From Prevotella sp. (GTDB taxonomy: Bacteria; Bacteroidota; Bacteroidia; Bacteroidales; Bacteroidaceae): DNA of 62,544 bases. The stretch's first letter is position 1. The number at the start of each line of letters is the position of its first letter. The position numbers and the translations under genes are program-made. The notes beneath the pieces were generated by a model, which did not search any database, was not told where the DNA came from, and saw only the letters and a list, made by a program, of their open reading frames with translations. This document shows, piece after piece, positions 1 to 51,551 of the stretch. The stretch covers positions 1-62,544 of the forward strand of contig JAIKZG010000010.1 of assembly GCA_024682415.1 (NCBI GenBank), read 5' to 3'.

Positions 1-40
1 TATTATCTTTCAATCTGGGCATAATATTTCTGTAAAATTA
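1..40 (+). repeat. Recombination site A (silent-cassette type)
   Basis: The core GGGCATAATATTTCTGT is at 17-33, preceded by the silent-type left flank TATTATCTTTCAATCT. All 40 bases are identical to 9643-9682. The core is in inverted orientation to site D (1815-1831), and both are read in the same frame as Gly-His-Asn-Ile-Ser-Val. Confidence 0.85.
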
Positions 41-727
41 ACCGCAACTTTACCTGTAGCAGATATGCTTGATGTAGTCTTTGCACAAAATGGTACAGCA
101 AGTGATAACTCAACATCTAATTGGACATTGACATATAATAATCCACAAGTAGAATGGAACCCCACTTTCAAACGATACGAAGCGGTTTTTAATAATATTT
201 CAACAGTAGGATCTTATTGCTATTTTACTTATACTTCATATGAAACTTTTCAAGATAAGATGAAAGATGGCTTTTCTATAGAATGCGTGATAAAAGCTGT
301 TGCTCAACAAAATGGGCAAGATCAGAAGTTTTTTGGAGGAATAGAAAATGGTGGCGCTTGCTTAAGAGTTAGTGGTGCAAAAGCTCATGCCGTATTTTTT
401 ATAAATGATCAATATCGTATTGCAGGTTCAACATCTTCTTTGAGTCCAGATAAATATTATCATATTGTTGGTGTCTGGGATAAACCTAACGGAAAACTTT
501 TGCTTTATTTAAATGGAGTATTAGAAGGTACTAATAATAATTGCTCTGGCAATTTTCGTTTTCCCAATGCTTCTGAATATTTAATTGGTATAGGCGCAGA
601 TCAAGCTGGAGGTATAACTCCTGAAAGCGATAATGGTTTTGCAGGAAGATTTGTTATAGGAAGAATTTATGACAAGATACTAACAGCAAATGAAGTGTTA
701 AAATTATATAGTAGTGTAATGAGATAA
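2..727 (+). CDS. Promoterless C-terminal cassette with LamG-like domain (partial at left edge)
   Basis: The frame is open from the window edge and has no credible start. The first ATG (position 65) lies inside the domain, and the frame upstream reads IIFQSGHNISV across recombination site A. The body looks like a concanavalin/LamG-like beta-sandwich: a hydrophobic strand pattern, a W-D pair near nt 475-483, and the segment LLLYLNGVLEG, typical of LamG_3 domains. No signal peptide, RBS or TAnnTTTG box is visible. Read from the shared GHNIS codons it is in frame with the lipoprotein at 1037-2686, so I infer a silent alternative 3' end brought into use by inversion. It ends at a strong terminator. 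An independently expressed gene starting left of the window cannot be excluded. Confidence 0.75.
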   Translation: MIFQSGHNISVKLTATLPVADMLDVVFAQNGTASDNSTSNWTLTYNNPQVEWNPTFKRYEAVFNNISTVGSYCYFTYTSYETFQDKMKDGFSIECVIKAVAQQNGQDQKFFGGIENGGACLRVSGAKAHAVFFINDQYRIAGSTSSLSPDKYYHIVGVWDKPNGKLLLYLNGVLEGTNNNCSGNFRFPNASEYLIGIGADQAGGITPESDNGFAGRFVIGRIYDKILTANEVLKLYSSVMR

Positions 728-738
728 TACATTATAGT

Positions 739-773
739 TATCCCCGAAAGATGTCCCAAAACTTTCGGGGATA
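739..773 (+). terminator. Terminator after LamG-like cassette
   Basis: A 12-bp perfect stem (739-750 with 762-773, GC-rich half CCCCGAAAG) has an 11-nt loop and is followed by a short T-rich stretch. It starts 12 nt after the cassette stop codon and so travels with the cassette. Confidence 0.75.
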
Positions 774-798
774 TTACTTTAATATCATCTGTTTTTTA

Positions 799-870
799 CT
801 AAAAACTAATTACAGCTCTCGCAGGTCCTCGTGTGTATTTTCCGTTATCAGGACCTAGCAATGAATGCTG
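799..870 (-). pseudogene. Decayed 3' end of a further C-terminal cassette
   Basis: On the minus strand this stretch reads, up to a stop at 799-801, a peptide ending KYTRGPARAVISF. The other cassettes end in the same style (IRCAVAF, RPFISF, RSSIAF). The frame is closed upstream by a stop at 871-873. It lies between the terminator of the LamG cassette and the stop of the expressed gene, inside invertible segment 1. The match is short, so this is tentative. The remaining bases to 1036 hold nothing I recognise. Confidence 0.4.
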
Positions 871-1036
871 TCAATTGGGAGAAAACAAACTTATCTATGA
901 ACATACGTAGCCTTGCTTTTGGGCCGCAAAGTTACAAATTCAAGTCCGTTGCCTCCGAGAACTGCTCATAAAAGACTCTATTTCAGCGATTTCAAAGAAC
1001 GATTAGCTCACTTTAACGGGACAGTAGTGTTTTATA

Positions 1037-2686
1037 TTAAAAAGCGACGGCACAACGTATTGCATATTTGTCTGTTTTTGTGTTAGGATTTGTTCCCAAT
1101 ACACATACATGTTGGTGATTGTATAAATGTATATGAATTGGACTAGAATCATAAGCCTCTGTGCTTGACCAATAGTATTGATCACGTCCCCCTATTTCTT
1201 GATAGTCGTCCGTCTTCGACAGATAACTATTTATATTCTCATCAATTGTTTTTTCATTGGAAGTGCTATTTAAGAATATATCTTGTCCATATACATTAAA
1301 TTCATATGGTTCAATTCCTTTTCCTAACACAGTAATTAAATGATGCCATTGTCCGACAGACATTAAAAACCATCCAGAAGAAGCCTTTGGTACAGGAACA
1401 GCATATGCGACTGCTGCAAAAAAGGCAGGACAATTGTCTGGTGTGTACGTACTATAATCAGTTACTCTATGCGTTTCAGAATAGCCATCATAATCAGTAA
1501 AGGCACTTTCGTATTCAGAATATGGGTATTGTATAGACATTATCAATGTTGAACCTAATGTACTCCATTGTTCTCCCTCACTTGCATTCTTTAATGCAAC
1601 AGCGTATCCATGATTCCATCCTTTTTGTTTATCTTTTGTAGAGGTATTCGTAGAAAATACTAAAGCTACAGGAGTTATTCCCTTGGATTTTGCTAATGAC
1701 AAATCATTGGGTTTTACAACAACTGCTTGTCCGTTATTTGCTAAAGAATAAAAATCACCAATAGAAATATTTGTTCCACCTCCATATACATTGACATTAT
1801 CTCCATTTATTCTTACAGAAATATTATGCCCATAACCTGCTCTTAAATTCTTGCCTCCAGAGAGAGTTCCAGTGTAGTTTGTTCCACCTACATTTACTGT
1901 TACGGTAATATCTCCTGTTGATGACTTTGGAGCAACACACGCCTCGAAAGTTGCAGCGGCTGTAGTACCTGTTACGGTACTAGCTGAAGAATTGTACATC
2001 TGTACCGTACCTGTAGTGTTTGTTGCGGTCAGTGTACCATTGCTAAAACTTCCAGTAAGATTTACGCCAGAAAGTGTAACACTATTGATTGTGCTATTGA
2101 GGAGGTAATTAGCATTCTCTACAGTTACGTTTACAATGATTTTGGCTGTCTTGTGCGCAAACGTCAAATCGTTCCCCGTACTGTTCTGATTAACAGTGCA
2201 AGTAGCATACAACAAATCACTTGCATTATAGTTAGCAAGTGTGCGCTGATCGCCTTTTACAGAAAACTGTGAGAAAGCTGCACTGTATGGAAACCATGCA
2301 GCAACAGTTTGATCGCTCAAAGACGTGAAATAATAGGTAGAAGAAGAACTTAATACACCATTATTATCAACAGTGTATTTATAAACATTGCCTCCACCTA
2401 TCTGCACAGCAACGTCTGAAGTGCTACGCGCACTCCACGAATCAGTACGAGTAAGAATTTGATTTTCAGGGAGAATAGTGTCCTTCTCTGCAAGAGTCAT
2501 AGCCTCAATGTCGGGACTGGTAGCAAGAACAGATGCTCTTGTTTCCATTTTTACCGGGGTTATGGCACTGATGTCACTAGTAAATTTTAGCTCCTTTCCG
2601 CTTTGACCTTCGAGGTCGTCTGTCGAAGAGCACCCAGCAAAGGCCATAGCAGTGGCTGCCAGGATAATAATTCTATTATGTTTCAT
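1037..2686 (-). CDS. Fimbrillin-family surface lipoprotein with switchable C-terminal domain
   Basis: 549 residues. A lipoprotein signal peptide ends AFAG-Cys19, so the protein is probably lipidated and carried to the outer membrane. Residues about 45-285 are a fimbrillin-like (Mfa-like) beta domain with the family's YYFTSL, AAWFPY and DLLYA...FAHKTAK patterns. Residue 286 begins GHNISVRI, encoded by recombination site D. From about 300 to the end is a FISUMP/DUF1566-like domain (SSGWFLMSVGQW, YYWSSTE, IRCAVAF), a C-type-lectin-like fold common on Bacteroidetes surface proteins. It is the only gene of the cassette family here with both a start and a complete N-terminal half attached to the site, so I infer it is the expression locus. 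Its likely role is a fimbrial tip or accessory adhesin; the ligand is unknown. Confidence 0.85.
   Translation of the reverse strand: MKHNRIIILAATAMAFAGCSSTDDLEGQSGKELKFTSDISAITPVKMETRASVLATSPDIEAMTLAEKDTILPENQILTRTDSWSARSTSDVAVQIGGGNVYKYTVDNNGVLSSSSTYYFTSLSDQTVAAWFPYSAAFSQFSVKGDQRTLANYNASDLLYATCTVNQNSTGNDLTFAHKTAKIIVNVTVENANYLLNSTINSVTLSGVNLTGSFSNGTLTATNTTGTVQMYNSSASTVTGTTAAATFEACVAPKSSTGDITVTVNVGGTNYTGTLSGGKNLRAGYGHNISVRINGDNVNVYGGGTNISIGDFYSLANNGQAVVVKPNDLSLAKSKGITPVALVFSTNTSTKDKQKGWNHGYAVALKNASEGEQWSTLGSTLIMSIQYPYSEYESAFTDYDGYSETHRVTDYSTYTPDNCPAFFAAVAYAVPVPKASSGWFLMSVGQWHHLITVLGKGIEPYEFNVYGQDIFLNSTSNEKTIDENINSYLSKTDDYQEIGGRDQYYWSSTEAYDSSPIHIHLYNHQHVCVLGTNPNTKTDKYAIRCAVAF
1815..1831 (-). 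repeat. Recombination site D (expression-locus type)
   Basis: The 17-bp core is preceded on the minus strand by GGTTAT rather than the silent flank. It is followed by AGAATAAATGG and about 30 more bases shared almost exactly with cassette C. It encodes G286-H-N-I-S-V. Confidence 0.85.
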
Positions 2687-2815
2687 AACTTCACAAAATT
2701 TTATAGTTTATAGCCAAATTGTAGTTTTTAAAACGGCGCAACCTGTTTGTTCATACTCCTCTGCCAGCCGATTTTCACAAAGCGCGCAGGCTATGTAATT
2801 GCACCAACTACGCCA

Positions 2816-2823
2816 CAAATATA
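2816..2823 (-). promoter_or_regulatory. Putative -7 box of the switchable lipoprotein gene
   Basis: TATATTTG on the minus strand matches the Bacteroidetes consensus TAnnTTTG. It lies 130 nt upstream of the ATG. A TTGG at 2847-2850 could be the -33 element, but the spacing (23 nt) is long. Confidence 0.4.
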
Positions 2824-2987
2824 AGCACATCACACAGAATAAATTGCCAAGATTTCAGAAAATTTTCATCATTTTGTTTTTCTTTGTGTCATGGCGGCTC
2901 TGTTTTCAAATCGCGTTTGGGCACGGAATGGCAAGGGCGTTTTACGTTAAATTTTGATTAAAAAGTAAATAGTAACTCATATTTTAT

Positions 2988-2995
2988 TATTTTTG
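2988..2995 (+). promoter_or_regulatory. Putative -7 box upstream of DUF4468 gene
   Basis: TATTTTTG fits TAnnTTTG and lies 54 nt before the start codon. No clear -33 TTG is present at 19-20 nt. Confidence 0.4.
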
Positions 2996-3049
2996 CGTGG
3001 AGAAAACGTTTATACAGATTTTAAACCATAAAGATATACTCTATAAATA

Positions 3050-3712
3050 ATGAAAAAGATACTGATTGCAGCGATAGCTTTGCTGCCAATGGCTTCATAC
3101 GCCCAAAGCGAATGGGAACTCCCCACACAGAAGCAGCAACAGGAGGAAGTGAAGGTTGTTGAAAACAAGAAGATAGCTGAAACTTATAAACCGGATCTTA
3201 GCCCTTATCTTGCGGGAGCTGTGCCTGAAGTGGACGGCAAAATTGTGTTCACCCGTGATATTGACCTTTCGGGAATGACGGCTCAGCAGATATATGATGG
3301 GGCGTATCAGTATCTTGATACATTGACTCAGGGCAGCCGACAGAAGCCGAATGGGGAAAGCCACATCGCGCTCGTAAACAAGAAGGAGCATTCTATCATT
3401 GCCGTGTGCAACGAGTGGATGGAGTTTAAGCACAATGTGATAACGCTCGACAGATCGGAGTTCCGCTATGTGATGATAGTAAACTGCAAGGACGGGCATT
3501 TAAATGCTACAGTGGGCAGAATAAACTATCTCTACGATGAGGGCCGCGCCACGGAGCTGAAGATTACTGCGGAAGACTGGATAAGCGATAGGAATGCGCT
3601 CAACAAGAAAAAGAATAAGCTCGTGAAATTGTCGGCAAAGTTTAGAATCGGCACTATTGACAGAGTGAAGCAGATATTCGGCGACTTGGAGAAGGCGTTG
3701 AAGAAAGCATAA
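3050..3712 (+). CDS. DUF4468 domain-containing secreted protein
   Basis: 220 residues with a clear signal peptide (MKKILIAAIALLPMASYAQ). The body matches the DUF4468 family, common in Bacteroidetes periplasmic or outer-membrane proteins of unknown function: a pattern of the type FTRDIDLSGMTAQQIYDGAY, then MEFKHNVITLDRSEFRYVM, then YLYDEGRA. A lysine-rich stretch follows around residues 185-195, before the C-terminus. It is 26 nt upstream of a small membrane-protein gene and probably co-transcribed with it and the porin. No enzymatic motif is visible. Confidence 0.8.
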   Translation: MKKILIAAIALLPMASYAQSEWELPTQKQQQEEVKVVENKKIAETYKPDLSPYLAGAVPEVDGKIVFTRDIDLSGMTAQQIYDGAYQYLDTLTQGSRQKPNGESHIALVNKKEHSIIAVCNEWMEFKHNVITLDRSEFRYVMIVNCKDGHLNATVGRINYLYDEGRATELKITAEDWISDRNALNKKKNKLVKLSAKFRIGTIDRVKQIFGDLEKALKKA

Positions 3713-3738
3713 TTTCCCACATATATTTTATTTTTTAT

Positions 3739-4029
3739 ATGAAAGAGAAGGACAATAGCCCGATGGAGTTGCCAAAGATGCAGAGAGAGGGCAATAATTA
3801 CGCGAAAGACGTGAAGGAAATTCGTGAGGCAAGAGAAAAGATGGAGGAAGTGGTGTATGGCTCTAATCGCTTCTTGGTGATAAGAAATGTGCTCAATCTC
3901 GTTTTTATCGTCTTGGCGGTGATAGGCGTGGCGGTGTATCTGCTGCAAAGCGAAACGGTTGGCACGGTGATTCTTATCTTCGCTATCATTCTCAAGTTTG
4001 CGGAAACGATTTTGAGAATTATGCACTAA
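3739..4029 (+). CDS. Small two-helix membrane protein
   Basis: 96 residues. A charged amphipathic N-terminal half (about residues 1-48, coiled-coil-like EIREAREKMEEV) is followed by two hydrophobic helices (about 50-70 and 74-90) with a very short turn. I do not recognise a family. It lies between the DUF4468 and porin genes on the same strand, so it may belong to that envelope operon. Confidence 0.7.
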   Translation: MKEKDNSPMELPKMQREGNNYAKDVKEIREAREKMEEVVYGSNRFLVIRNVLNLVFIVLAVIGVAVYLLQSETVGTVILIFAIILKFAETILRIMH

Positions 4030-4077
4030 AAAAATCGTGCATAAAAAAGAAAAAATTCATAGGAAACTTTTAAGAAA

Positions 4078-6432
4078 TTGAAACAGATATTTTTTTTTCT
4101 GATGTTGCTGTGTGCTCCTTTCGTGGCGGCAACAGCTCAAAACACTATTCAAAGCCAGGACTCATTCAACCAAATGGATGAGGAGGGCAACATATCAAAA
4201 AGAAATAAAAAGACGCTTGCCGACTCGTTAGGCTCTGACAAGGAGATACCTATCGGAATAAAGGTGTGGACGATAGACCCACGCTTCGGCGACCGCATAA
4301 TGGCAGCGCCCGACACTTTGTCGCACGGCTTTATGAACACGATTTTCACCACAGGAAAGTATGGAGAATATAATGCTACGGGAAACCTCGGCGCGCCACG
4401 CATAAGCAGAATATTCATTGACCGACCTACATCGACCGATCAGTTTATATTCACGCAGCCATATGAGGGATTTTTTATCACTCCTGTGGAGAAATTCCAT
4501 TTCACAAACACGCTTTCTCCTTTCACCAACCTCACTTACCACACGGCAGGCGACAAGACTAATGGTGAAGACAGATTGAAAGCTCTGTTCGGAGTGAATG
4601 CCGGCAAGAGAATTGGTCTCGGCTTCAAGTTCGACTATATGTATGGCAGGGGTTATTACAGCAATCAGAACACGTCGCTTTTTGATTACACGATGTATGG
4701 CTCTTATCTCGGCGAACGCTATCAGGCGCATCTGCTGATGTCTACCAATCATCAGAAAGTTGCGGAGAACGGCGGTATCACCAACGACCTCTACATCACA
4801 AATCCTGAGCATTTTGATGATGATTTCAATACGGATGAAATTCCTACTGTATTGGAAAAGAACTGGAATAGAAATGATAATCAGCACATTTATTTCAACC
4901 ATAGATATAGCCTTGGTTTCCGTCGCAAGGTGAAGATGACCGAGGAGGAAATAAAGGCGCGCAAATTTGCCATGGCTTCCGAAAAGGAAAATGCTGAGAA
5001 GAAAGCTCACCAGGAGGCTGCCAACAAGGCAAGGCAACAAGGCAGAGATACTGACGCGAAAGGCAAGAAAAAGGAAGTCGTGACTTATGGTGGACGACCT
5101 AAAGACGCTAAGATAGCAGGCGTAGAGCCTACTGCCGACGGAAAGAAGAATGAGCGCATCGCCATTAGCGATAACGCCATGGCTGACAGCTTGTTGGCAA
5201 AGGAAGAGAAAGCAAAGGAGGACACTTCGTGGCTGAAAACGGAGTATGTGCCTGTAACGAGTTTTATCCACACCGTAAGATTTGACAACTACAGACGCAT
5301 ATATCAGGCTTACGAAACTCCTGAGAATTACTATGCCGACACTTACAATACATTTAGCAAGTTTGGCGGAGATTCTATATACGATAAGACTCGCCACTAT
5401 CGTCTGCAAAACACATTCGCAATATCTCTGCTTGAGGGTTTCAACAAATGGGCAAAGGCTGGATTGAAAGGCTTTATCACTCATGAGCTGCGCAATTTCA
5501 ATTTGCCCGACTCTGTAGGCGGCACGGCTTCATATAAAGAAAACAATATCAGCATAGGAGCGCAGATTTCAAAGACGCAAGGCTCTATGCTTCATTTCAA
5601 TGCCACTGCCGAGACATGGCTCACAGGCGAGGACGCTGGTCAATTCCGCATTGACGCTACGGCAGACCTCAATTTCCGATTGTTTGGCGACACTGTTACG
5701 CTCGCTGCCAATGGATTTATCCACAGAGATAACCCATCATTCTATTATCGTCATTTCCACGCAAAACATTATTGGTGGGACAACAGTAGTATGGACGCCA
5801 TATATCACACTCGCTTAGAGGGGCTTTTCCTTTATCAGAAGACGAAGACCACTCTTCGCTTCGCGTTCGACGAGCTAAAGAATTACGCATATTTCTCTAA
5901 TTCTTACGACATCACCAATTCGGGCGACTCTTATGGCAGATCTAACAACAGGGTGAACGTAAATCAGAGCAGCAGCGCGATAACATTGCTCACCGCCTCA
6001 ATAAGTCAGGACGTGAAGCTCGGTCCGTTAAACTGGGAAACTATTCTCACTTATCAGAAAAGCACGAAGCAGGATGTTATCCCTGTGCCAGATTTTAATG
6101 TGTACACCAATCTGTATCTCAGATTTAAGATTGCCCATGTGCTCAAATGTGAGTTTGGTGGTGATATGCGTTATTTCACCAAATATGCTGCGCCTGATTA
6201 TGTGCCTGGCATTGGAATGTATGCCGTGCAGGGAAATGAGACGAAGACAGAGGTGGGCAATTATCCGCTCATCAATGTGTATGCTAACTTCCATTTGAAG
6301 CACACTCGTTTCTTCATCATGATGAGCCATGTAAATTCTGGCATGGGCGACAAGAACTATTTCTTCACCCCTCATTATGTGTTGAATGACCGCATACTAA
6401 GATTCGGATTGAGTTGGAATTTCTTTAACTAA
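4078..6432 (+). CDS. Putative outer-membrane porin (Porin_10 family)
   Basis: 784 residues, consistent with the Bacteroidetes putative porin family (PF14121). It has a signal peptide (about 21 residues, ending ATAQ), many amphipathic strands with aromatic girdles, and a terminal Phe-Asn pair. TTG at 4078 is the earliest possible start: an in-frame stop lies at 4060-4062 and no ATG or GTG intervenes. A run of nine T (4090-4098) lies in the signal-peptide codons directly after the start. Residues about 285-390 form a Lys/Glu/Ala-rich hydrophilic insertion between beta-strands, probably an extracellular or periplasmic loop. Substrate unknown. Confidence 0.8.
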   Translation: MKQIFFFLMLLCAPFVAATAQNTIQSQDSFNQMDEEGNISKRNKKTLADSLGSDKEIPIGIKVWTIDPRFGDRIMAAPDTLSHGFMNTIFTTGKYGEYNATGNLGAPRISRIFIDRPTSTDQFIFTQPYEGFFITPVEKFHFTNTLSPFTNLTYHTAGDKTNGEDRLKALFGVNAGKRIGLGFKFDYMYGRGYYSNQNTSLFDYTMYGSYLGERYQAHLLMSTNHQKVAENGGITNDLYITNPEHFDDDFNTDEIPTVLEKNWNRNDNQHIYFNHRYSLGFRRKVKMTEEEIKARKFAMASEKENAEKKAHQEAANKARQQGRDTDAKGKKKEVVTYGGRPKDAKIAGVEPTADGKKNERIAISDNAMADSLLAKEEKAKEDTSWLKTEYVPVTSFIHTVRFDNYRRIYQAYETPENYYADTYNTFSKFGGDSIYDKTRHYRLQNTFAISLLEGFNKWAKAGLKGFITHELRNFNLPDSVGGTASYKENNISIGAQISKTQGSMLHFNATAETWLTGEDAGQFRIDATADLNFRLFGDTVTLAANGFIHRDNPSFYYRHFHAKHYWWDNSSMDAIYHTRLEGLFLYQKTKTTLRFAFDELKNYAYFSNSYDITNSGDSYGRSNNRVNVNQSSSAITLLTASISQDVKLGPLNWETILTYQKSTKQDVIPVPDFNVYTNLYLRFKIAHVLKCEFGGDMRYFTKYAAPDYVPGIGMYAVQGNETKTEVGNYPLINVYANFHLKHTRFFIMMSHVNSGMGDKNYFFTPHYVLNDRILRFGLSWNFFN
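4090..4098 (+). repeat. Nine-base poly-T tract in porin signal-peptide codons
   Basis: A homopolymer of nine T lies four codons after the TTG start. Slippage by one base would abolish expression, making it a possible contingency tract. Length is near the lower limit for known slippage loci. Confidence 0.5.
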
Positions 6433-6626
6433 AATTCTGCATCATTCCGCATTTGTAATGGTGATAAGTAAGCACCTTTTATGATAGAATTTGGCGATTT
6501 CTTGCATTGTTAGCTTGCTAAGGCTCTTGCTTTGGGGTTAAGTTATTTATTTCTTGCTTGATATTGTAAGCTTGGCAATATTTATGGCACTTCTACGATA
6601 AGACTAAAAACATAGCATAAATTTTA

Positions 6627-6672
6627 AAACTGCATCAAGGATTAACATCGTTTTTCTTGATGCAGTTTTTTG
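6627..6672. terminator. Strong terminator after porin
   Basis: A 13-bp perfect stem (AAACTGCATCAAG, 6627-6639, with 6656-6668) is followed by a T-run. It would also work in the other direction through the A-run preceding it. Confidence 0.8.
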
Positions 6673-6726
6673 TATATAGAGCGACCGATAAGTGCTTATT
6701 TTATTATCCTATTTTAGTCCGATTAT

Positions 6727-6743
6727 GGGCATAATATTTCTGT
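6727..6743 (+). repeat. Orphan recombination site E
   Basis: The exact 17-bp core has an expression-type left flank (GATTAT). In the family frame it reads DYGHNISVRNKSEV and stops within 20 codons; upstream the frame closes with TAG at 6715-6717. It belongs to no gene, and is inverted relative to site D and direct relative to A and B. Confidence 0.8.
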
Positions 6744-6879
6744 TAGAAATAAATCGGAGGTAATAAAGATTTTCCTTACTTGATTTTATCATTTATATTT
6801 CTAAATGGTTTCTTCAAAGAATAAATTTAGAAATACAAGTGGCTGTTTCTTTTTCTATAAAATTTAAAGAACAAATAGT

Positions 6880-8313
6880 ATGAGATACAATCCATTTTTT
6901 TATAAGTTTTTGAAGACTATTACAGTCTTCATGTTCTTTGTTTTTATTTCATGTAATAATGATGATAATAACGAAGGAAATATCTATGTAGAGTCTCAAT
7001 TCAAAGCTTCAATTGGAAGTATGCCTGAGACTAGAATTTCAAAAGACCAATATTCAAAGGACAATGTTATCATAAGCATTGATTCTTTGACGACAAATAA
7101 CACTAGAGCGTCTGTTGATAATACATGGGATGGTAATGAACAAATTTCCGTATATATCGACAACATGTTATATGATTATAACATAACGAATATAAATGGA
7201 AGTATGTCTTCTTCTAATCCATATTATTTCACAGATGTGAGAACTCATTCAATACAAGCATGGTACCCCAAAACGACTTCTGCTTTAACTTCATTTTCTG
7301 TAAAATCAGATCAATCAATACTTAACAACTACCAAGCAAGTGATTTGTTATTTTCTTCAAGAAAAAACGTAACTGCAGATCAGCAAGAATTAAATTCGTT
7401 TTCACACAAGACTGCAAAGCTGACAATTCAACTTACGATGCCAAATTATTTGAGTGATGCAAATACGATAAAAGTAAAATGCGGAACAACAAATTTCTGT
7501 CTGAATGGTATCTTCTCTATTAATAATGAAACTTTGACAGCAAATACAGCAGGACAAAAAGGACAAATAACAATGTATAAGTCTGGAGCAAATACTTATG
7601 TCGCAAGTCTTATACCTGGCCAAAAACTTGAACAAATACAAGTTCTATTAAATCAAGCAATTTTTACAGCAAAAGTAAATTGCAATATTGAAAGCGGGAA
7701 AAGTTATAGCTGCAATGTTTCTGTAAGAGATGGCGTTGTTACTTCTGGTACGTATCGTGGGCATGCTTATACAGATATGGGATTAAGCGTAAAATGGGCC
7801 ACAATGAATGACGGAGCTACAAGCTATTTGGAATATGGAGATATGCTTAATCGAGATACTCCGACTGAGTCTTGGCCTGGTTGGACGTTGCCGACACCAG
7901 CACAAATGAGAGAACTGATTGATAACTGTGTATGTACATGGATTACGATATACAATAAAGATGGAATAACATTTAATACGTCAAACAATGGAAATACTCT
8001 AATTCCTGGCGGTACGAATCTAATTAATGGATTTTTGTTTACAAGTAAGATAAATGGCAATGCTTTGTTCTTACCTGCCGCAGGAATAGGAAACTGGAAT
8101 ATGAACATACATAATAAGTGGAATACACTTGGATGGTATGCAAATACTAATACATACCAAGAGGCATTAGCATATGGTCATAATACTAAAGTGGATTTGG
8201 CAGGAATGCTCTTCACTCAAGACTACTTACAATGCCCGACTCAAGCGGCGGCAACATTTGACGGACGAACGTGGCATGATAATGGCTTTTCAATAAGAGC
8301 GGTTACAAATTAA
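6880..8313 (+). CDS. Fimbrillin-like lipoprotein with FISUMP-type C-terminal domain
   Basis: 477 residues. The signal peptide ends FIS-Cys25 and is followed by Asn/Asp-rich residues, a typical surface-lipoprotein start. Residues about 60-290 are a fimbrillin-like domain paralogous to the gene at 1037-2686 (shared PYYF, QAWYP, SFSVKSDQ, ASDLLF, FSHKTAK). Residues about 300-477 are a FISUMP-like domain (MGLSVKWATMNDGA, GWTLPTPAQMRELID, FTSKINGNALFLPAAG). At the domain joint the DNA (7713-7727) still resembles the recombination core but with several changes, so this copy is probably locked. Strongly AT-rich. A likely surface adhesin or fimbrial subunit. Confidence 0.8.
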   Translation: MRYNPFFYKFLKTITVFMFFVFISCNNDDNNEGNIYVESQFKASIGSMPETRISKDQYSKDNVIISIDSLTTNNTRASVDNTWDGNEQISVYIDNMLYDYNITNINGSMSSSNPYYFTDVRTHSIQAWYPKTTSALTSFSVKSDQSILNNYQASDLLFSSRKNVTADQQELNSFSHKTAKLTIQLTMPNYLSDANTIKVKCGTTNFCLNGIFSINNETLTANTAGQKGQITMYKSGANTYVASLIPGQKLEQIQVLLNQAIFTAKVNCNIESGKSYSCNVSVRDGVVTSGTYRGHAYTDMGLSVKWATMNDGATSYLEYGDMLNRDTPTESWPGWTLPTPAQMRELIDNCVCTWITIYNKDGITFNTSNNGNTLIPGGTNLINGFLFTSKINGNALFLPAAGIGNWNMNIHNKWNTLGWYANTNTYQEALAYGHNTKVDLAGMLFTQDYLQCPTQAAATFDGRTWHDNGFSIRAVTN

Positions 8314-8354
8314 AATATAACGAATCTATAGTAGTATACTTTTATAAAATATTA

Positions 8355-8389
8355 TGTGGCTCTGAAATGATATAACTTTCAGAGCTACA
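8355..8389 (+). terminator. Terminator after fimbrillin-like lipoprotein
   Basis: A 13-bp stem with one G-T wobble (8355-8367 with 8377-8389) lies 41 nt after the stop codon. Confidence 0.65.
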
Positions 8390-8452
8390 TATATAAAAAA
8401 GTGATATATGATTGTTTTTTCTTTCAAACACATAATGCATTAATAATGGATA

Positions 8453-8674
8453 TTATTCTTTGAATTTAGATGGTTTATCTTGTAAGGTTTGAATAGCAAT
8501 ACCAAATTCCATTAAGATATTTACAAAATTTGGATTATCCTTTCCTACAATATAGTTAACGACACTATCTATGCTAAAAGTATAAAATACTTCGCGATGT
8601 TTCGCTTTATAAACAAAATATGATGTTTTACTGTAATTTTCGTTAAGGATTACGCAATCAAAACACGAATACAT
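8453..8674 (-). CDS. Small hypothetical protein, last gene of DUF3990 module
   Basis: 73 residues, not recognised. It is rich in Tyr and Phe, with no signal peptide or membrane helix. It starts 16 nt after the DUF3791-like gene and is read in the same direction, so it is probably translated from the same transcript. Third small genes of this kind are common in DUF3990 loci, but I cannot assign a family. Confidence 0.55.
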   Translation of the reverse strand: MYSCFDCVILNENYSKTSYFVYKAKHREVFYTFSIDSVVNYIVGKDNPNFVNILMEFGIAIQTLQDKPSKFKE

Positions 8675-8690
8675 AATAAAAGCGTTTCTC

Positions 8691-8906
8691 TTATTTAATC
8701 TCTTCTTTCAGATAATCATAAATATAATCGGGACTTTGTAAATAAAGTCCTGTGTTTGTATCGGTTAGCTTTTGATATATTTCTGAATTATATATACAAC
8801 CGAAAGCATCAATAATTGAATAGCCATAATCTTGTCGCAGATATAATACTATCTGCTCAACGTCATTGTTGATTATGAATTGCAATTGATTCTTTGTTAG
8901 TTTCAT
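8691..8906 (-). CDS. DUF3791-like small protein
   Basis: 71 residues. The pattern of the second half (IYNSEIYQKLTDTNTGLY, QSPDYIYDYL) is the one found in small proteins encoded beside DUF3990 genes. The start codon overlaps the DUF3990 stop by 4 nt (ATGA), which indicates translational coupling. Function unproven; a partner or antidote role for the neighbouring ADP-ribosyltransferase-like protein is inference from operon structure. Confidence 0.7.
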   Translation of the reverse strand: MKLTKNQLQFIINNDVEQIVLYLRQDYGYSIIDAFGCIYNSEIYQKLTDTNTGLYLQSPDYIYDYLKEEIK

Positions 8907-9376
8907 ATCCTTTTCAAATATTTAATGGCACGCTCCGTTCCGAAAAAGAATTGACGATTAAGTTTCTTGTAAGTCAGTTCTTTCACAAGACTTTCCATTG
9001 TTATAATATGCTGCATATATAGGTTTAATTGGTAAACCACGCCATCATCGGCAACAGGACCGATAACAATATCATAACCATGCATCTTTTTGCCACGCGC
9101 CTTTCTGTTCTTTAGTATAAATTCCGCCCACTCAACAGATACTTCATTGAATATCTTTACGTTGAATTTTTCAGAAGAAAACAATGTATCGTCGAATTCA
9201 TACTTTAATACAATTGGCGTGCCCTCTTTGGCAAACTCGCATCGTCTAATTGCCATTTCCTGAGCCTGCTTTCTAATATCCGTCAAATAGAAGCCTTGTC
9301 CAAAATCTTTGTTTGGACGGCATTTCTTCAAATCTATCTTACGGAAATCAACGTTTGTACCGTGATATAAAATCAT
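8903..9376 (-). CDS. DUF3990 protein, predicted ADP-ribosyltransferase fold
   Basis: 157 residues. The start LYHGTN (His5), the block DFGQGFYLT (Tyr30) and the later SVEWAEFI (Glu82/Glu85) fit the H-Y-E pattern of the ART superfamily to which DUF3990 (PF13151) has been related. No signal peptide; probably cytoplasmic. It is flanked by two DUF3791-like genes with overlaps of 1 nt (upstream) and 4 nt (downstream), an arrangement suggesting a toxin-antitoxin or regulatory cassette. The target of modification, if any, is unknown. The module lies between recombination sites E and B and would be flipped by the larger predicted inversions. Confidence 0.75.
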   Translation of the reverse strand: MILYHGTNVDFRKIDLKKCRPNKDFGQGFYLTDIRKQAQEMAIRRCEFAKEGTPIVLKYEFDDTLFSSEKFNVKIFNEVSVEWAEFILKNRKARGKKMHGYDIVIGPVADDGVVYQLNLYMQHIITMESLVKELTYKKLNRQFFFGTERAIKYLKRI

Positions 9377-9582
9377 TATATAGACCCTCCGTTACGTCTG
9401 CAATAAACTTTAAGATCGCTTAAGGCTTCACTCAAAGACAATTGATGTTCTGCTTCATAGCATTTATCTAAGAATTCAAGTCCTTTATACTGTCTTAGAT
9501 AATTATATGCCATTTGTGCCGACATTCGGAATTTCTTTCCAAACTCAACGATACACAGATTTATATATCTTACTTTGTTCAT
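9376..9582 (-). CDS. DUF3791 family protein
   Basis: 68 residues. FRMSAQMAYNYLRQYKGL followed by FLDKCYEAEHQLS and a C-terminal CRRNGG matches the DUF3791 pattern. First gene of the DUF3990 operon, its stop overlapping the next start by one base. A good promoter sits just upstream. A DNA-binding or antitoxin role is possible, but only by analogy with operon layout. Confidence 0.75.
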   Translation of the reverse strand: MNKVRYINLCIVEFGKKFRMSAQMAYNYLRQYKGLEFLDKCYEAEHQLSLSEALSDLKVYCRRNGGSI

Positions 9583-10462
9583 CTTGTTTTATATAGTGTT
9601 ACACAAAGATACTAATATTTTTTTAATACACAATATTTGCTTTATTATCTTTCAATCTGGGCATAATATTTCTGTAAAATTATCTGCGAGTAAATTGAGT
9701 ATATTCACAGGGTCAAGTATTGCAGTAGGTGACTATTATTCAATGGCAGCAAATGGTCAAGCGTATGTCGTTAATGCCGCAAACTTGACTACAGCAAAAG
9801 GAAAAGGAATAAATCCAATTGCTGTAATTTTTTGTACTACAACTTCAAGCATAGACAAAGCACTCGGTTTCAAAAATGGTTATGCTTTGGCATTAAAAGA
9901 GGCAGCAGGAAAAGGTAATAGATTTGCATATAGAACCACAGGATCTGGCAATGATCATCAACACCAATATCCACCATATAGTGAGGTTTCTATCTATAAT
10001 TTATATCTACAAAACATGGACGGATATACCGAAACACTTGATATTTATGGAAAATCGACAAGAGCAAATTACCCTGCATTTATAAAATGCGTAGAATACC
10101 CAGTTATATACCCCAAAACAAGTAGTGGGTGGTTTATGGCATCAAGTGGGCAATGGTATCAAATCTTTATAACTTTGGGAGGTATGGAACCTAATGGCTT
10201 ATCTATTGTTAATGAAACACAATTGATATGGAATGGAATGGCCAAAACAGCGGCAGACAATATTAATAGCTATTTCAAAAAGACAGGAGATGGAAATTAT
10301 GATCTTATTGAAATTGGCTGTCATTATTGGATTTCATCTGAGTGGAATGATGAAAATGCTACTTCTGTAGATTTTGATTCAGATACACATTTATATATGT
10401 ATGATAATTGGCCGGCTAAGAAGACAGCGGCAATTTGGGTGCGATCTTCAATTGCATTTTGA
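9575..10462 (+). CDS. Silent C-terminal cassette B (FISUMP-like domain)
   Basis: The meaningful part starts at the site B codons (9641, FIIFQSGHNISV). The formal ATG at 9575 overlaps the opposite-strand DUF3791 start and is preceded by no promoter, so I regard it as spurious. The body (AVGDYYSMAANGQAYVV, SSGWFMASSGQW, YWISSEW, final RSSIAF) is a paralogue of the C-terminal half of the lipoprotein at 1037-2686. It lacks any N-terminal fimbrillin domain or signal peptide. Inference: a storage copy brought into use by inversion between B and D, which would place the constant N-terminal half directly in front of it and in frame. Confidence 0.75.
   Translation: MFILFYIVLHKDTNIFLIHNICFIIFQSGHNISVKLSASKLSIFTGSSIAVGDYYSMAANGQAYVVNAANLTTAKGKGINPIAVIFCTTTSSIDKALGFKNGYALALKEAAGKGNRFAYRTTGSGNDHQHQYPPYSEVSIYNLYLQNMDGYTETLDIYGKSTRANYPAFIKCVEYPVIYPKTSSGWFMASSGQWYQIFITLGGMEPNGLSIVNETQLIWNGMAKTAADNINSYFKKTGDGNYDLIEIGCHYWISSEWNDENATSVDFDSDTHLYMYDNWPAKKTAAIWVRSSIAF
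9604..9633 (-). promoter_or_regulatory. Promoter of the DUF3791/DUF3990 operon
   Basis: On the minus strand: TTG (9631-9633), 19-nt spacer, TATCTTTG (9604-9611). Both match the Bacteroidetes -33/-7 consensus, and it predicts a leader of about 15 nt before the ATG at 9582. It ends 10 nt from recombination site B. Confidence 0.7.
9643..9682 (+). repeat. Recombination site B (silent-cassette type)
   Basis: Identical over 40 bases to window positions 1-40; core at 9659-9675. Inverted relative to site C (11340-11372) and site D. Confidence 0.85.
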
Positions 10463-11356
10463 GGATGCAAGCAAATAAAAGAATAGCGATATTATATTAT
10501 TAACATACAAGAGAGGGTGTGTTCAAATGGCACACCCTCATGTATTTATTCAAACTTAGAACGAAATAAATGGGCGCGTATAGAATGTGTTTGACAGTGT
10601 TTTTGAGTCGTCTGCATTCCAAAACCATATCTGAGCACCATAAGTTTCAAAACCGATAGATTTTGCTTCGTTTTTTTCAACACATGTCCATGTTCTAACA
10701 GTACGATCTTCTGGCCATGCTGTATAATAGCCTTCTCCTGCAGAACTTAAAAATGTACCCATGTTTCTATAGAAAGCTTGTGCATATGTATTATTTTGCC
10801 AACCATAATCACCTGCTTCATTTTTATAAGAAGCTGTTGTATAATCACCTGTACCACATGCTAGCAACATTTGATAGGTTTGTCCTGGTGCAGGTAAATA
10901 CCATCCTGAAGATGTAGTAGGTGCAGGTACGTCAAAATTAATTGCTGCAAAAAATGCAGGATGTGTAGCTGCAGAATAAACATTATTATCTGTAATATAA
11001 TGCGTACCTTCGTATCCATCTACATCTTTAAAACCATCTTCAGGAAGAGTAAACCTATGTGAAGATGATTGATATAATTTTTCTTCAACAGCCCATGCCT
11101 TGTTATCAAAAACTGCTTTCAAACTTACTCCATAACCATGTTTCCAACCATGATTCTTATCATTTTGACTTGGATTTAAAGAAATGACAACTGCTATAGG
11201 GGTAATTCCTTCAGCTTTTGCTGCTGCAAGGTTAGCAGCGCTAACGACATATGCTTGTCCTGTTGTTGAATAACAATAATAATCCCCAACTGCCATATTG
11301 CCTCCTCCATATACATTGACATTATCTCCATTTATTCTTACAAAAATATTATGCCC
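9659..11356. other. Predicted invertible segment 2 (sites B and C)
   Basis: Inverted cores bound two convergent silent cassettes that meet at the terminator at 10513-10539. Flipping it alone would not change expression. It would change which cassette faces site D for the next inversion. Confidence 0.7.
10513..10539. terminator. Bidirectional terminator between convergent cassettes
   Basis: Stem GAGGGTGTG (10513-10521) pairs with CACACCCTC (10531-10539). The same stem, with a nearly identical loop, recurs at 54982-55009. Confidence 0.75.
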
Positions 11357-11389
11357 AGATTGAAAGATAATAAGATAGATGTTGCTCAT
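10556..11389 (-). CDS. Silent C-terminal cassette C (FISUMP-like domain)
   Basis: From the site C codons (IIFQSGHNIFV) onward it reads a paralogue of the expressed C-terminal half (AVGDYYCYSTTGQAYVV, SSGWYLPAPGQTYQM, final RPFISF). No N-terminal fimbrillin domain or signal sequence is attached. The formal ATG 13 codons upstream of the site lies under the promoter of the opposite gene. The first 40-50 bases after the core are nearly identical to the expressed gene (both NVNVYGGG), whereas the left flank is of the silent type. This mixed flank pattern is what past recombination would leave. Site C is direct to D, so expression of C needs two inversion steps. Confidence 0.75.
   Translation of the reverse strand: MSNIYLIIFQSGHNIFVRINGDNVNVYGGGNMAVGDYYCYSTTGQAYVVSAANLAAAKAEGITPIAVVISLNPSQNDKNHGWKHGYGVSLKAVFDNKAWAVEEKLYQSSSHRFTLPEDGFKDVDGYEGTHYITDNNVYSAATHPAFFAAINFDVPAPTTSSGWYLPAPGQTYQMLLACGTGDYTTASYKNEAGDYGWQNNTYAQAFYRNMGTFLSSAGEGYYTAWPEDRTVRTWTCVEKNEAKSIGFETYGAQIWFWNADDSKTLSNTFYTRPFISF
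11340..11372 (-). repeat. Recombination site C (silent-cassette type)
   Basis: The core at 11340-11356 differs by one base (ATTTTTG for ATTTCTG). The silent left flank TATTATCTTTCAATCT lies at 11357-11372. Confidence 0.85.
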
Positions 11390-11411
11390 TCAAAAAATAG
11401 TATTAACTTTG
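11382..11411 (+). promoter_or_regulatory. Promoter of AAA/PD-(D/E)XK gene
   Basis: TTG (11382-11384), 19-nt spacer, TAACTTTG (11404-11411). It places the transcript start near 11418 and so selects the ATG at 11433 over the upstream ATG at 11379. It begins 10 nt beyond recombination site C. Confidence 0.7.
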
Positions 11412-11432
11412 TGGCAATTAAATGTAGCAAAG

Positions 11433-12992
11433 ATGGGAAATACAAGATATCCAATTGGAATACAGACTTTTTCAAATATAATTGAAGGACAATACATATA
11501 TATAGACAAAACAAAATATGTATATGAATTGGCTAAAGATTATAAATACATTTTTCTGAGTCGCCCAAGACGATTCGGAAAATCTTTACTCACATCTACT
11601 TTTGAAAGTTATTTTGAAGGTAAGAAAGACTTGTTCAAAGGATTGGAGATAGACAATCTGGAAAAGGACTGGACAGAATACCCTGTGCTGCATTTTGATA
11701 TGAGCGTCGCGAAATACAAGAAAGAGGAAGAATTGCACTCTGCGCTTTCATATCAATTGGCGAATTTGGAGAATAAATTTGGGGTAGAAAAGAATGCAGA
11801 TGACGAGAATTTACGCTTAACAAATATCATCAATTCATGCTATACGAAATATGGCAAAAAAGTTGTAGTCCTCATTGATGAATATGACGCTCCGCTGCTT
11901 GATGTGCTCGACGACGCTGAGCAATTAAAAACACTACGCCAGATTATGCGTAACTTTTACAGTCCGCTAAAGGCTTGCGACCAATATCTGCGTTTCGTTT
12001 TTCTTACTGGTATAACAAAGTTTTCTCAGTTGAGTATATTCTCGGAACTCAACAATCTGAAAAATATAAGTATGATGCCTGAATATGCCGCTATCTGCGG
12101 TATATCAGAAGAGGAAATAACCTCTCAGCTTTCAGAGCCTATCTCGGAATTCGCTAAGGAGAACGGCATAACGAATGAGGAAGTAAGGCAAATATTAAAG
12201 GAGAATTATGACGGCTATCATTTCACATGGCCATCATCAGACATTTATAATCCTTTCAGCTTGCTTCAGGCACTACAAGACAAAAGTATAAATCCATATT
12301 GGTTCGGTTCTGGAACTCCTACATTTTTAATTAAGGAGCTACGAAAATTCAAAATTGACGTAGAGAATATTGATAACAACCGTGCGCTATCTTCTGCTTT
12401 TGACGCGCCTACGGAAACAATGACATCAATATTGCCATTGCTCTATCAAAGCGGATATATCACAATCGAGGATTATGACAAGATATTAAGATTGTATACT
12501 TTGCGCATTCCAAACAAAGAAGTGCGTATAGGGCTGATGGAATCGTTGTTGCCAAATTATGTAAAACCTCAGCGAAAGGATGAAACAATGACAACGGTCG
12601 CATATATGTATGACGCCATTCGTCATGATGATTTGGATAAGGCACTTACGCTGATACAGACATTTCTCGGCACTATTCCATACACAGATAACACTGATTA
12701 TGAAGGACATTATCAGTCTTTGTTCTATGTAATCTTCTCGCTTCTTGGCATGTATGTAGACGTGGAAGTACGCACGCCTAAAGGTCGTGTAGACATGGTG
12801 ATGAAAGCCAACGGCAGATTATACATTTGGGAATTAAAGATAGACAAAAGCGCTGACGGAGCAATGACACAGATTGATTTAAAACAATATCATGAGCGTT
12901 TCGTCATGGAAAATCTACCTATTACTAAAGTGGGAATAAACTTCTCTTCAAAGACTCGCAATATCACAGACTGGAAAATAATGGACATCTAA
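11433..12992 (+). CDS. AAA-ATPase-like / PD-(D/E)XK nuclease superfamily protein
   Basis: 519 residues from the ATG chosen by the promoter. The N-terminal AAA-ATPase_like region (PF09820) shows PIGIQTFSNII, YIDKT, then the P-loop-like SRPRRFGKSLL (about residues 43-53) and a Walker-B-like VVVLIDEYDAPLL. The C-terminal part carries a PDDEXK_9 (DUF1703) domain with GRVDMVMKANGRLYIWELK, whose Asp and Glu-x-Lys are the expected nuclease residues. The family is widespread and often multicopy in Bacteroidetes, with no established role; defence or mobile-element function is only suspected. It directly abuts the cassette array, but the family is too common to link it to the switching. Confidence 0.85.
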   Translation: MGNTRYPIGIQTFSNIIEGQYIYIDKTKYVYELAKDYKYIFLSRPRRFGKSLLTSTFESYFEGKKDLFKGLEIDNLEKDWTEYPVLHFDMSVAKYKKEEELHSALSYQLANLENKFGVEKNADDENLRLTNIINSCYTKYGKKVVVLIDEYDAPLLDVLDDAEQLKTLRQIMRNFYSPLKACDQYLRFVFLTGITKFSQLSIFSELNNLKNISMMPEYAAICGISEEEITSQLSEPISEFAKENGITNEEVRQILKENYDGYHFTWPSSDIYNPFSLLQALQDKSINPYWFGSGTPTFLIKELRKFKIDVENIDNNRALSSAFDAPTETMTSILPLLYQSGYITIEDYDKILRLYTLRIPNKEVRIGLMESLLPNYVKPQRKDETMTTVAYMYDAIRHDDLDKALTLIQTFLGTIPYTDNTDYEGHYQSLFYVIFSLLGMYVDVEVRTPKGRVDMVMKANGRLYIWELKIDKSADGAMTQIDLKQYHERFVMENLPITKVGINFSSKTRNITDWKIMDI

Positions 12993-12996
12993 AAAA

Positions 12997-13027
12997 TTGT
13001 TTGTTTCGCATTTTTGTAGTACCTTCG
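12997..13027 (+). promoter_or_regulatory. Promoter of cardiolipin synthase gene
   Basis: TTG (12997-12999), 20-nt spacer, TACCTTCG (13020-13027; one mismatch to TAnnTTTG). It favours the start at 13061 over the ATG at 13001. Confidence 0.5.
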
Positions 13028-51170: not shown

Positions 51171-51503
51171 TCAGAACAAAAAAGCGGTGTACTCACTCTC
51201 ACGAGCTGCGCTTACTGCTGCGCTTGTATTGTCAATCAATACACCTTGTCCATTAGCGTAAATTCCATAGAAATTGCCAATATCCATGGTTGTGTTGCCT
51301 TGATAAAGGAATTTGCTCGTATTGATATTGATTGTGGCTGTGTAGACATTATTCGCTGCGTATGTACGCAAATCCACGGCATTAGAATTATAAGTAGTTC
51401 CGCCTACATTTACTGCAAAAGTAAGTTCCGCCGATTGAGGAATGATGCAAGCCTCATATTCTCCATTGCCCTTGGGGTTCATGGTAATTTTTCTAATCCG
51501 CAA
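51171..51503 (-). pseudogene. Fimbrillin-like lipoprotein remnant
   Basis: The frame reads only the end of a fimbrillin-like domain (GEYEACIIPQSAELTFAVNV, GTTYNSNAVDL) and the first part of a FISUMP-like domain (MDIGNFYGIYANGQGVLI). It then stops at TAFLF where paralogues continue PVALVF. No signal peptide and no N-terminal half are present, so it is truncated at both ends. At the domain joint the DNA does not contain the recombination core. Probably a decayed relative of the genes at 1-11 kb. Confidence 0.65.
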
Positions 51504-51551
51504 GCGATTTTCAAAGAAAAATGTGCTTCAAATGTTAAATGTCGATTTATT

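What the first reader, a model, noticed from the sequence alone, without database searches (positions are those of the whole stretch)
1..2686. Invertible swap of the C-terminal half of a fimbrillin-type lipoprotein
Seen: the 17-bp core GGGCATAATATTTCTGT lies at the domain joint of the lipoprotein (1815-1831, minus) and, inverted, at the head of a start-less cassette (17-33, plus). Both are read in the same frame (Gly-His-Asn-Ile-Ser-Val), and the two coding ends converge between the sites. Inversion of 17-1831 would therefore join the lipidated N-terminal 288 or so residues exactly to the LamG-like cassette and silence the present end. Known: shufflons (for example PilV of R64) exchange C-termini in this way. 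Inference: an analogous system on a Bacteroidetes surface lipoprotein.
Basis: partly seen in the sequence, partly recalled or inferred. Interest (0 to 1): 0.93.

Follow-up and report, generated by a model that had tools for sequence, protein, structure and literature searches.

The report
Shuffled rear ends of a surface protein
One front half of a bacterial surface protein is found in public sequences joined, at the same short point, to three different rear ends, and it likely switches among at least six of them by flipping DNA between matching 18-base signals, which would change what the cell surface binds.

Summary
The 18-bp sequence TGGGCATAATATTTYTGT occurs six times in this 2.52-Mb assembly: five times in the first 11.4 kb of the window and once on contig C39. 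Five copies open, in one frame (Gly-His-Asn-Ile-Ser/Phe-Val), a 236-267-codon C-terminal ORF; the sixth (6726) opens an 18-codon stub. Only one copy is joined to a lipoprotein signal and fimbrillin domain (1832-2686, minus). Cassettes form two-faced units: inverted sites outside, two convergent ORFs inside, a hairpin between.

Outside support: public protein P0001 equals, over all 303 residues, the product predicted for joining the window's head to the 6726 stub, 4.9 kb away and inverted. P0003 has the same head (residues 1-291 identical), joined at GHNISV to another end absent from this assembly. Flanks of the sites are mixed and matched, with breakpoints at the core.

Best reading: a shufflon-like switch that swaps the putative ligand-binding half of a fimbrillin lipoprotein, with cassettes dispersed among unrelated genes and a head that carries its likely promoter. 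No recombinase gene lies near, so membership of the R64/Rci family is not claimed. The LamG fusion was not found. No reads were available.

The parts
1832..2686 (-). Constant head: lipoprotein signal and fimbrillin-like domain, residues 1-285 before the GHNISV joint; the only head joined to a site in this assembly
   Evidence: ORF 1037-2686; PF13149 3.8e-24 over residues 100-300; same head in P0001 and P0003
1815..1832 (-). 18-bp recombination site inside the expressed gene, encoding the GHNISV joint
   Evidence: predicted strand 286-294 at the end of the fimbrillin domain
1037..1831 (-). C-terminal cassette now joined to the head (264 codons from the core)
   Evidence: shares a conserved scaffold with 3 silent cassettes and 10 paralogue C-termini
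16..33 (+). 18-bp site heading the LamG cassette
17..727 (+). Start-less LamG-like C-terminal cassette (236 codons)
   Evidence: PF13385 2.9e-14; no in-frame start between the site and the contig end
739..773 (.). Hairpin between the two convergent ORFs of unit 1, possible two-way terminator
   Evidence: -18.4 kcal/mol, z -4.8; the simple terminator scan of 1-3100 lists none
6726..6743 (+). 18-bp site heading the stub
6727..6783 (+). Stub end: 18 codons then stop. Head + stub equals public protein P0001 over 303 of 303 residues
9658..9675 (+). 18-bp site heading cassette A
9659..10462 (+). C-terminal cassette A (267 codons); no ATG in frame upstream, only GTG/TTG
10505..10545 (.). Hairpin between the two convergent ORFs of unit 2
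   Evidence: -20.8 kcal/mol, z -5.3
10556..11356 (-). C-terminal cassette B2 (266 codons); one in-frame ATG 11 codons upstream, no room for a signal peptide
11340..11357 (-). 18-bp site heading cassette B2 (TTTTTGT variant)
2816..2823 (-). TATATTTG, candidate -7 element of a Bacteroidales promoter (motif recalled; the strict -33/-7 pattern has no match here). If real, the promoter travels with the head
   Evidence: sequence; upstream region printed

Best explanation
This is likely a shufflon-like switch: one anchored head of a fimbrillin-type surface lipoprotein is found joined, at the same GHNISV joint, to three different C-terminal ends, and it is predicted to exchange them by site-specific inversion between six 18-bp copies of the same DNA site. 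Shown: the six sites, the common frame, the two-faced cassette units, the mixed flanks, and two public proteins that carry the same head with other ends. Inferred: a tyrosine recombinase acting in trans cuts inside the core. Pairs in opposite orientation would invert 1.8 kb (16-1832: head to LamG), 4.9 kb (1815-6743: head to stub, the P0001 state) or 7.9 kb (1815-9675: head to cassette A). Cassette B2 (11340, same orientation as the head site) would be reached after its own unit (9658-11357) flips. Because the head carries its likely promoter, each join would express one end and leave the others without signal peptide or promoter. The likely effect is a change of surface binding or antigenic face in a fraction of cells; the stub state would leave a bare fimbrillin domain.
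For: Six exact sites in the assembly, each heading an end of this system. One frame in all six; 5 of 6 open at least 236 codons. The head joined in a script to the 6726 stub is identical to P0001, 303 of 303 residues (P0001; 8 member sequences). P0003 (12 member sequences) is identical over residues 1-291, through GHNISV, then has a different end; that end is not in this assembly (the start-less cassettes match it at 33-42%). Breakpoints at the core inside this assembly: C39 and 9658 share 99 bases right of the core and 0 left; 1815 and 11340 share 36 right and 0 left; 17 and 9658 share 15 left (to the contig end) and 7 right. Two-faced units with a strong hairpin in 3 of 3 gaps. Of 21 other full-length paralogues, 20 could be examined at the joint; none carries the core, and none shares a repeat with a start-less cassette of its own within the stretches fetched.
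Against: No recombinase gene was found on the window's contig or on C39: the seven PF00589 hits (two of them under the curated cut-off) are on C3, C33 (two), C15, C7 and C42 (two); no PF00239 match is in the assembly. The best core-like match in the 5- to 6-kb neighbourhoods of five of those seven is 13 of 18 (C33:6326 and C42:40812 were not scanned). P0001 and P0003 are known here as proteins from short contigs (1162 and 1722 bases; the source of P0001 is not shown), so an assembly chimera cannot be excluded, though the 21 bp shared at the 1815/6726 pair is short for that. No fusion to LamG, 9659, 11340 or C39 was found. A search with the present C-terminal end found only the window protein and P0003 at 40%. 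No reads. One 49-contig assembly, 86.9% complete.
Confidence: 0.85

Rival explanations
1. Fixed strain alleles: the ends were exchanged in the past, by homologous recombination or gene conversion between strains, and each strain now keeps one end. There is no ongoing switch.
For: P0001 and P0003 may come from other strains; no mixed population was shown. Cassettes share longer heads (99 bp for C39/9658, 36 bp for 1815/11340), which gene conversion could also make.
Against: The 1815/6726 exchange has only 21 bp in common (3 bases left of the core, 0 right) and joins inverted loci 4.9 kb apart, poor substrates for homologous exchange. The five full ends are open and lie as two-faced inverted units, as in shufflons.
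Confidence: 0.1
2. Assembly artefact: P0001 and P0003 are chimeric short contigs and the sites are only a repeated coding motif of a protein family.
For: Short contigs (1162, 1722 bases); the contig of the window itself starts at the repeated flank of the first site.
Against: The core is absent from the joints of the 20 paralogues examined, which encode other residues there. The repeat heads start-less ORFs, a stub and inverted copies. P0001 has 8 and P0003 12 member sequences, although their independence was not checked.
Confidence: 0.04
3. Fossil cassettes: the silent ends are remnants of duplications, no longer reachable.
For: No recombinase found nearby; the head is docked to one end only here.
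Against: Intact frames, identical 18-bp cores in 5 of 6 sites, and the observed head+stub product.
Confidence: 0.05

Closest known systems
Shufflon of plasmid R64 (PilV/Rci)
   Same: Constant N-terminus joined in frame to alternative C-termini at inverted copies of a short site; a conserved block with a variable left arm (R64 sfx: 12-bp variable left arm, 7-bp core, 12-bp right arm; passages of PMC11852207); segments with convergent ORFs (segment structure of R64 recalled).
   Different: Fimbrillin-type lipoprotein instead of a type IV pilin; sites spread over 11 kb among unrelated genes and on another contig; no recombinase found beside it; the head itself lies in segments that would invert.
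Bacteroides fragilis SusC/SusD shufflon (Tsr0667)
   Same: Inversions in a Bacteroidales genome that change which outer-membrane proteins are made (PMC11852207 introduction passage; citation in PMC12632263).
   Different: According to that passage it yields alternative alleles using different promoters; here the crossover is inside the coding sequence and exchanges protein domains.
Promoter invertons of Bacteroidales surface genes (Mpi-controlled capsules; BT1927 S-layer; fimbrillin invertons)
   Same: Phase variation of surface molecules; fimbrillin genes are among those near invertons (passages of PMC12548429, PMC12632263, PMC11892184, PMC5903667).
   Different: Those described there turn promoters on or off; here the product itself would change.
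Ureaplasma mba/UU172 inversions
   Same: Inverted repeats within surface-protein genes create chimeric genes, in frame, with a distant partner (PMC3047005 abstract and passages).
   Different: Other proteins and sites, in Mollicutes.
Gene-altering programmed inversions (Milman 2023) and intragenic invertons (Chanin 2024)
   Same: General class: inversion changes coding sequence.
   Different: Both papers are not held and are known here only from citations, so whether this family is listed there was not checked.

Membership tests
R64-type shufflon | Several inverted copies of a short asymmetric site, conserved block plus variable arm | tested here: met
   Six copies, four kinds of left flank and four kinds of right flank around an 18-bp block
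R64-type shufflon | Constant N-terminus and alternative C-termini in one frame | tested here: met
   P0001, P0003
R64-type shufflon | Invertible segments with convergent ORFs | tested here: met
   Units 16-1832 and 9658-11357; on C39 one cassette faces a piece like the end of the LamG cassette, 13 of its last 18 residues identical
R64-type shufflon | Rci-type tyrosine recombinase encoded beside the segments | tested here: not met
   No PF00589 hit on C14 or C39. The assembly stops at window base 1, so one could lie beyond
R64-type shufflon | Recombination shown to depend on the recombinase | not testable with these tools
   No reads, no bench data
Fimbrillin-like (PF13149) | Pfam match over the curated cut-off | tested here: met
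   86.5 bits against 27; with a profile of 11 sequences, solved chains 3ufi and 3t2l match at E 4.3e-5 and 0.0042
Fimbrillin-like (PF13149) | Assembly into a pilus | not tested
   Assembly genes were not looked for
Laminin_G_3 (PF13385) | Pfam match over the curated cut-off | tested here: met
   53.9 bits against 27.6 for 2-724
Known family for the other cassettes | Curated model match | tested here: not met
   For the first of 14 C-termini both Pfam matches are under the cut-off, and over all 14 the best E-value is 7e-4; no NCBIfam match for the three silent non-LamG cassettes and none over cut-off for the expressed protein; no PHROG for 14 of 14

The most novel reading that the evidence does not exclude
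A dispersed shufflon: a promoter-bearing, membrane-anchored fimbrillin head travels by kilobase-scale inversions through the chromosome, flipping unrelated genes with it, and docks in turn to two-faced units that carry binding domains of different kinds (LamG-like or an unclassified conserved scaffold), or to a stub that leaves the bare head. The recombinase acts from elsewhere in the genome.
Probability: 0.5. Interest if true: 0.78.

Novelty: new variant of a known kind. Interest (0 to 1): 0.66.

Why it matters
The Bacteroidales examples in the passages read here mostly turn promoters on or off. This locus appears to change the business end of one surface lipoprotein while keeping its anchor, from a library of ends that includes at least two unrelated kinds. 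If true, it gives a directly testable case of binding-specificity switching in this group, and the public proteins with the same head and other ends show that metagenome assemblies can be mined for such states.

Tried and rejected
Recombinase search: of seven tyrosine recombinase hits in the assembly, C3 and C33:116094 look like XerD and XerC (by eye; not scanned against curated models); C15 is a 393-residue integrase near a contig end; C7 (307 residues) lies beside two fimbrillin genes; C42 (277 residues) lies beside a 721-residue ORF of phage-like look (by eye). None of the five scanned neighbourhoods has a core-like site above 13 of 18. C7 and C15 remain candidates only.

Relatives: the genome-contig scan with the head gave no relative. 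The 18-bp pattern gave 38 stretches with one match each in scattered phyla, which read as chance. Core with up to 1 mismatch: 2 of 99 other genomes (59 of the genus, 40 of the order), one copy each. Head at E<=1e-45: 0 of 199 others of the genus. Cassette A at E<=1e-10: 2 of 39 others. Nothing in phages or plasmids (near mode) or viral contigs. No Rfam match in 1-13000.

Structure: the model of the expressed protein is confident only in part of the head (mean pLDDT 42.7), and the LamG model is poor (33.3), so no fold search was run. A C-type-lectin-like fold for the cassettes was considered from memory; no call supports it.

Promoter scan of 1-3100: 13 sigma-70-like sites against 11.4 expected, no information.

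An apparent repeat at a joint on C3 proved to be same-strand similarity within a run of fimbrillin-like genes.

Full report
What is there. The window is contig C14 of a 2.52-Mb, 49-contig assembly and begins at the contig's first base. Within the window, matches with up to 3 mismatches number 6 against a shuffle mean of 0.24.

Anatomy. Every copy is read GGG-CAT-AAT. Five open 236-267 codons; the copy at 6726 opens 18 codons and stops. Only the 1815 copy is preceded by a head: lipoprotein signal (by eye) plus fimbrillin-like domain (PF13149, 3.8e-24), residues 1-285. The LamG-like cassette (PF13385, 2.9e-14) is at 17-727. Three other cassettes (9659, 11340, C39) resemble the expressed end (38, 34 and 33% identity) and ten paralogue C-termini, with 18 invariant columns. 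No curated family names this scaffold.

Two-faced units. Sites 16 and 1832 enclose two convergent ORFs; so do 9658 and 11357. On C39 the cassette faces a piece at the contig's edge that reads like the end of the LamG cassette (13 of the last 18 residues identical); a search of the assembly with the whole LamG cassette found no second copy, so its body is missing from the assembly. In each of the three gaps lies a strong hairpin (-18.4, -20.8 and -23.4 kcal/mol; z -4.8, -5.3, -7.2), although the simple terminator scan lists none in 1-3100.

Recombination. Comparing the six sites pair by pair, identity often breaks at the core: C39 and 9658 share 99 bases to the right and none to the left; 1815 and 11340 share 36 right, none left; 17, 9658 and 11340 share a left flank (15-16 bases) but lead into three different ends. 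This is what crossing over inside the core would leave.

Outside evidence. A protein search with residues 1-292 returned three proteins at E<=1e-20 among the 7991 candidates scored (only those sharing most words): the window's own, P0001 and P0003. The head joined to the 6726 stub, made in a script, equals P0001 at 303 of 303 positions. P0003 is identical over residues 1-291, through GHNISV, and then has an end that this assembly does not hold. A second search with the head alone added no other state: seven proteins at E<=1e-10, P0001 and six homologues at 38-41% identity. A third, with the present C-terminal end, returned the window protein and P0003 (40%). So two alternative joins are seen as proteins; their DNA was not seen, and the LamG join was not seen.

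Specificity of the system. The assembly gave 29 matches to the whole protein; 22 are full-length genes of this head family at over 100 bits, the window gene among them. Of the 21 others, 20 could be examined at the joint; none carries the core, and within the stretches fetched none shares a repeat with a start-less cassette of its own. The 21st (C37) did not align there. The window gene is the only shuffled one found.

Enzyme. No tyrosine recombinase was found on C14 or C39, and no PF00239 match in the assembly. Five of the seven tyrosine recombinase neighbourhoods were scanned for core-like sites, with none above 13 of 18. The enzyme may lie beyond the contig start, be missing from the 86.9% complete assembly, or act in trans, as described for the global invertase Mpi of B. 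fragilis (passages of PMC5903667 and PMC12632263).

Where the joint falls. In the partly confident model (mean pLDDT 42.7; blocks between 181 and 300 at 62-88) the core encodes a strand at 286-294, near the end of the fimbrillin domain. Each cassette would thus bring that strand and a new following domain. This is a prediction.

Comparison. It works like the R64 shufflon and differs in protein family, in dispersion over at least 11 kb and a second contig, in the head lying within invertible segments, and in the lack of a neighbouring recombinase in what is assembled. Passages (not whole texts) of PMC11852207, PMC12548429, PMC12632263, PMC10939037, PMC11892184, PMC5903667 and PMC3047005 were seen. 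Ten paper searches of the held open-licence library, judged by titles and the starts of abstracts, listed no description of a C-terminal shufflon on a fimbrillin lipoprotein; two central papers (Milman 2023, Chanin 2024) are not held, so novelty at family level is not settled.

Verdict. Observation confirmed; interpretation supported and widened. New variant of a known kind.

Noticed in passing
upstream of fimbrillin paralogues in genome G000 (for example L062:87-175, L048, L051): Many paralogues share a conserved 5' leader: the word TTTATATTTGCA is in 19 of 22 upstream regions and GTGCCTTATTGG in 14; the window gene has neither. It may be a shared promoter or leader RNA.
   Followed up: partly
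6784-8313 (+): A second fimbrillin-like lipoprotein starts 96 nt after the stub's stop, so the P0001 state would place the head's promoter upstream of it and might switch it on too.
   Followed up: no
51174-51527 (-): A headless fragment of the same fimbrillin family (118-residue open frame), probably a relic; it carries no core.
   Followed up: partly
8903-9376 (-): DUF3990 protein (8e-51) with a weak ADP-ribosyltransferase-like match, lying between shuffled units.
   Followed up: no
G000 C7:67169 and L043 (C3:44000-52473): A 307-residue tyrosine recombinase lies beside two fimbrillin genes on C7; C3 ends in a run of eight same-strand ORFs that look like fimbrillin-type lipoproteins by eye (not scanned with family models).
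   Followed up: partly
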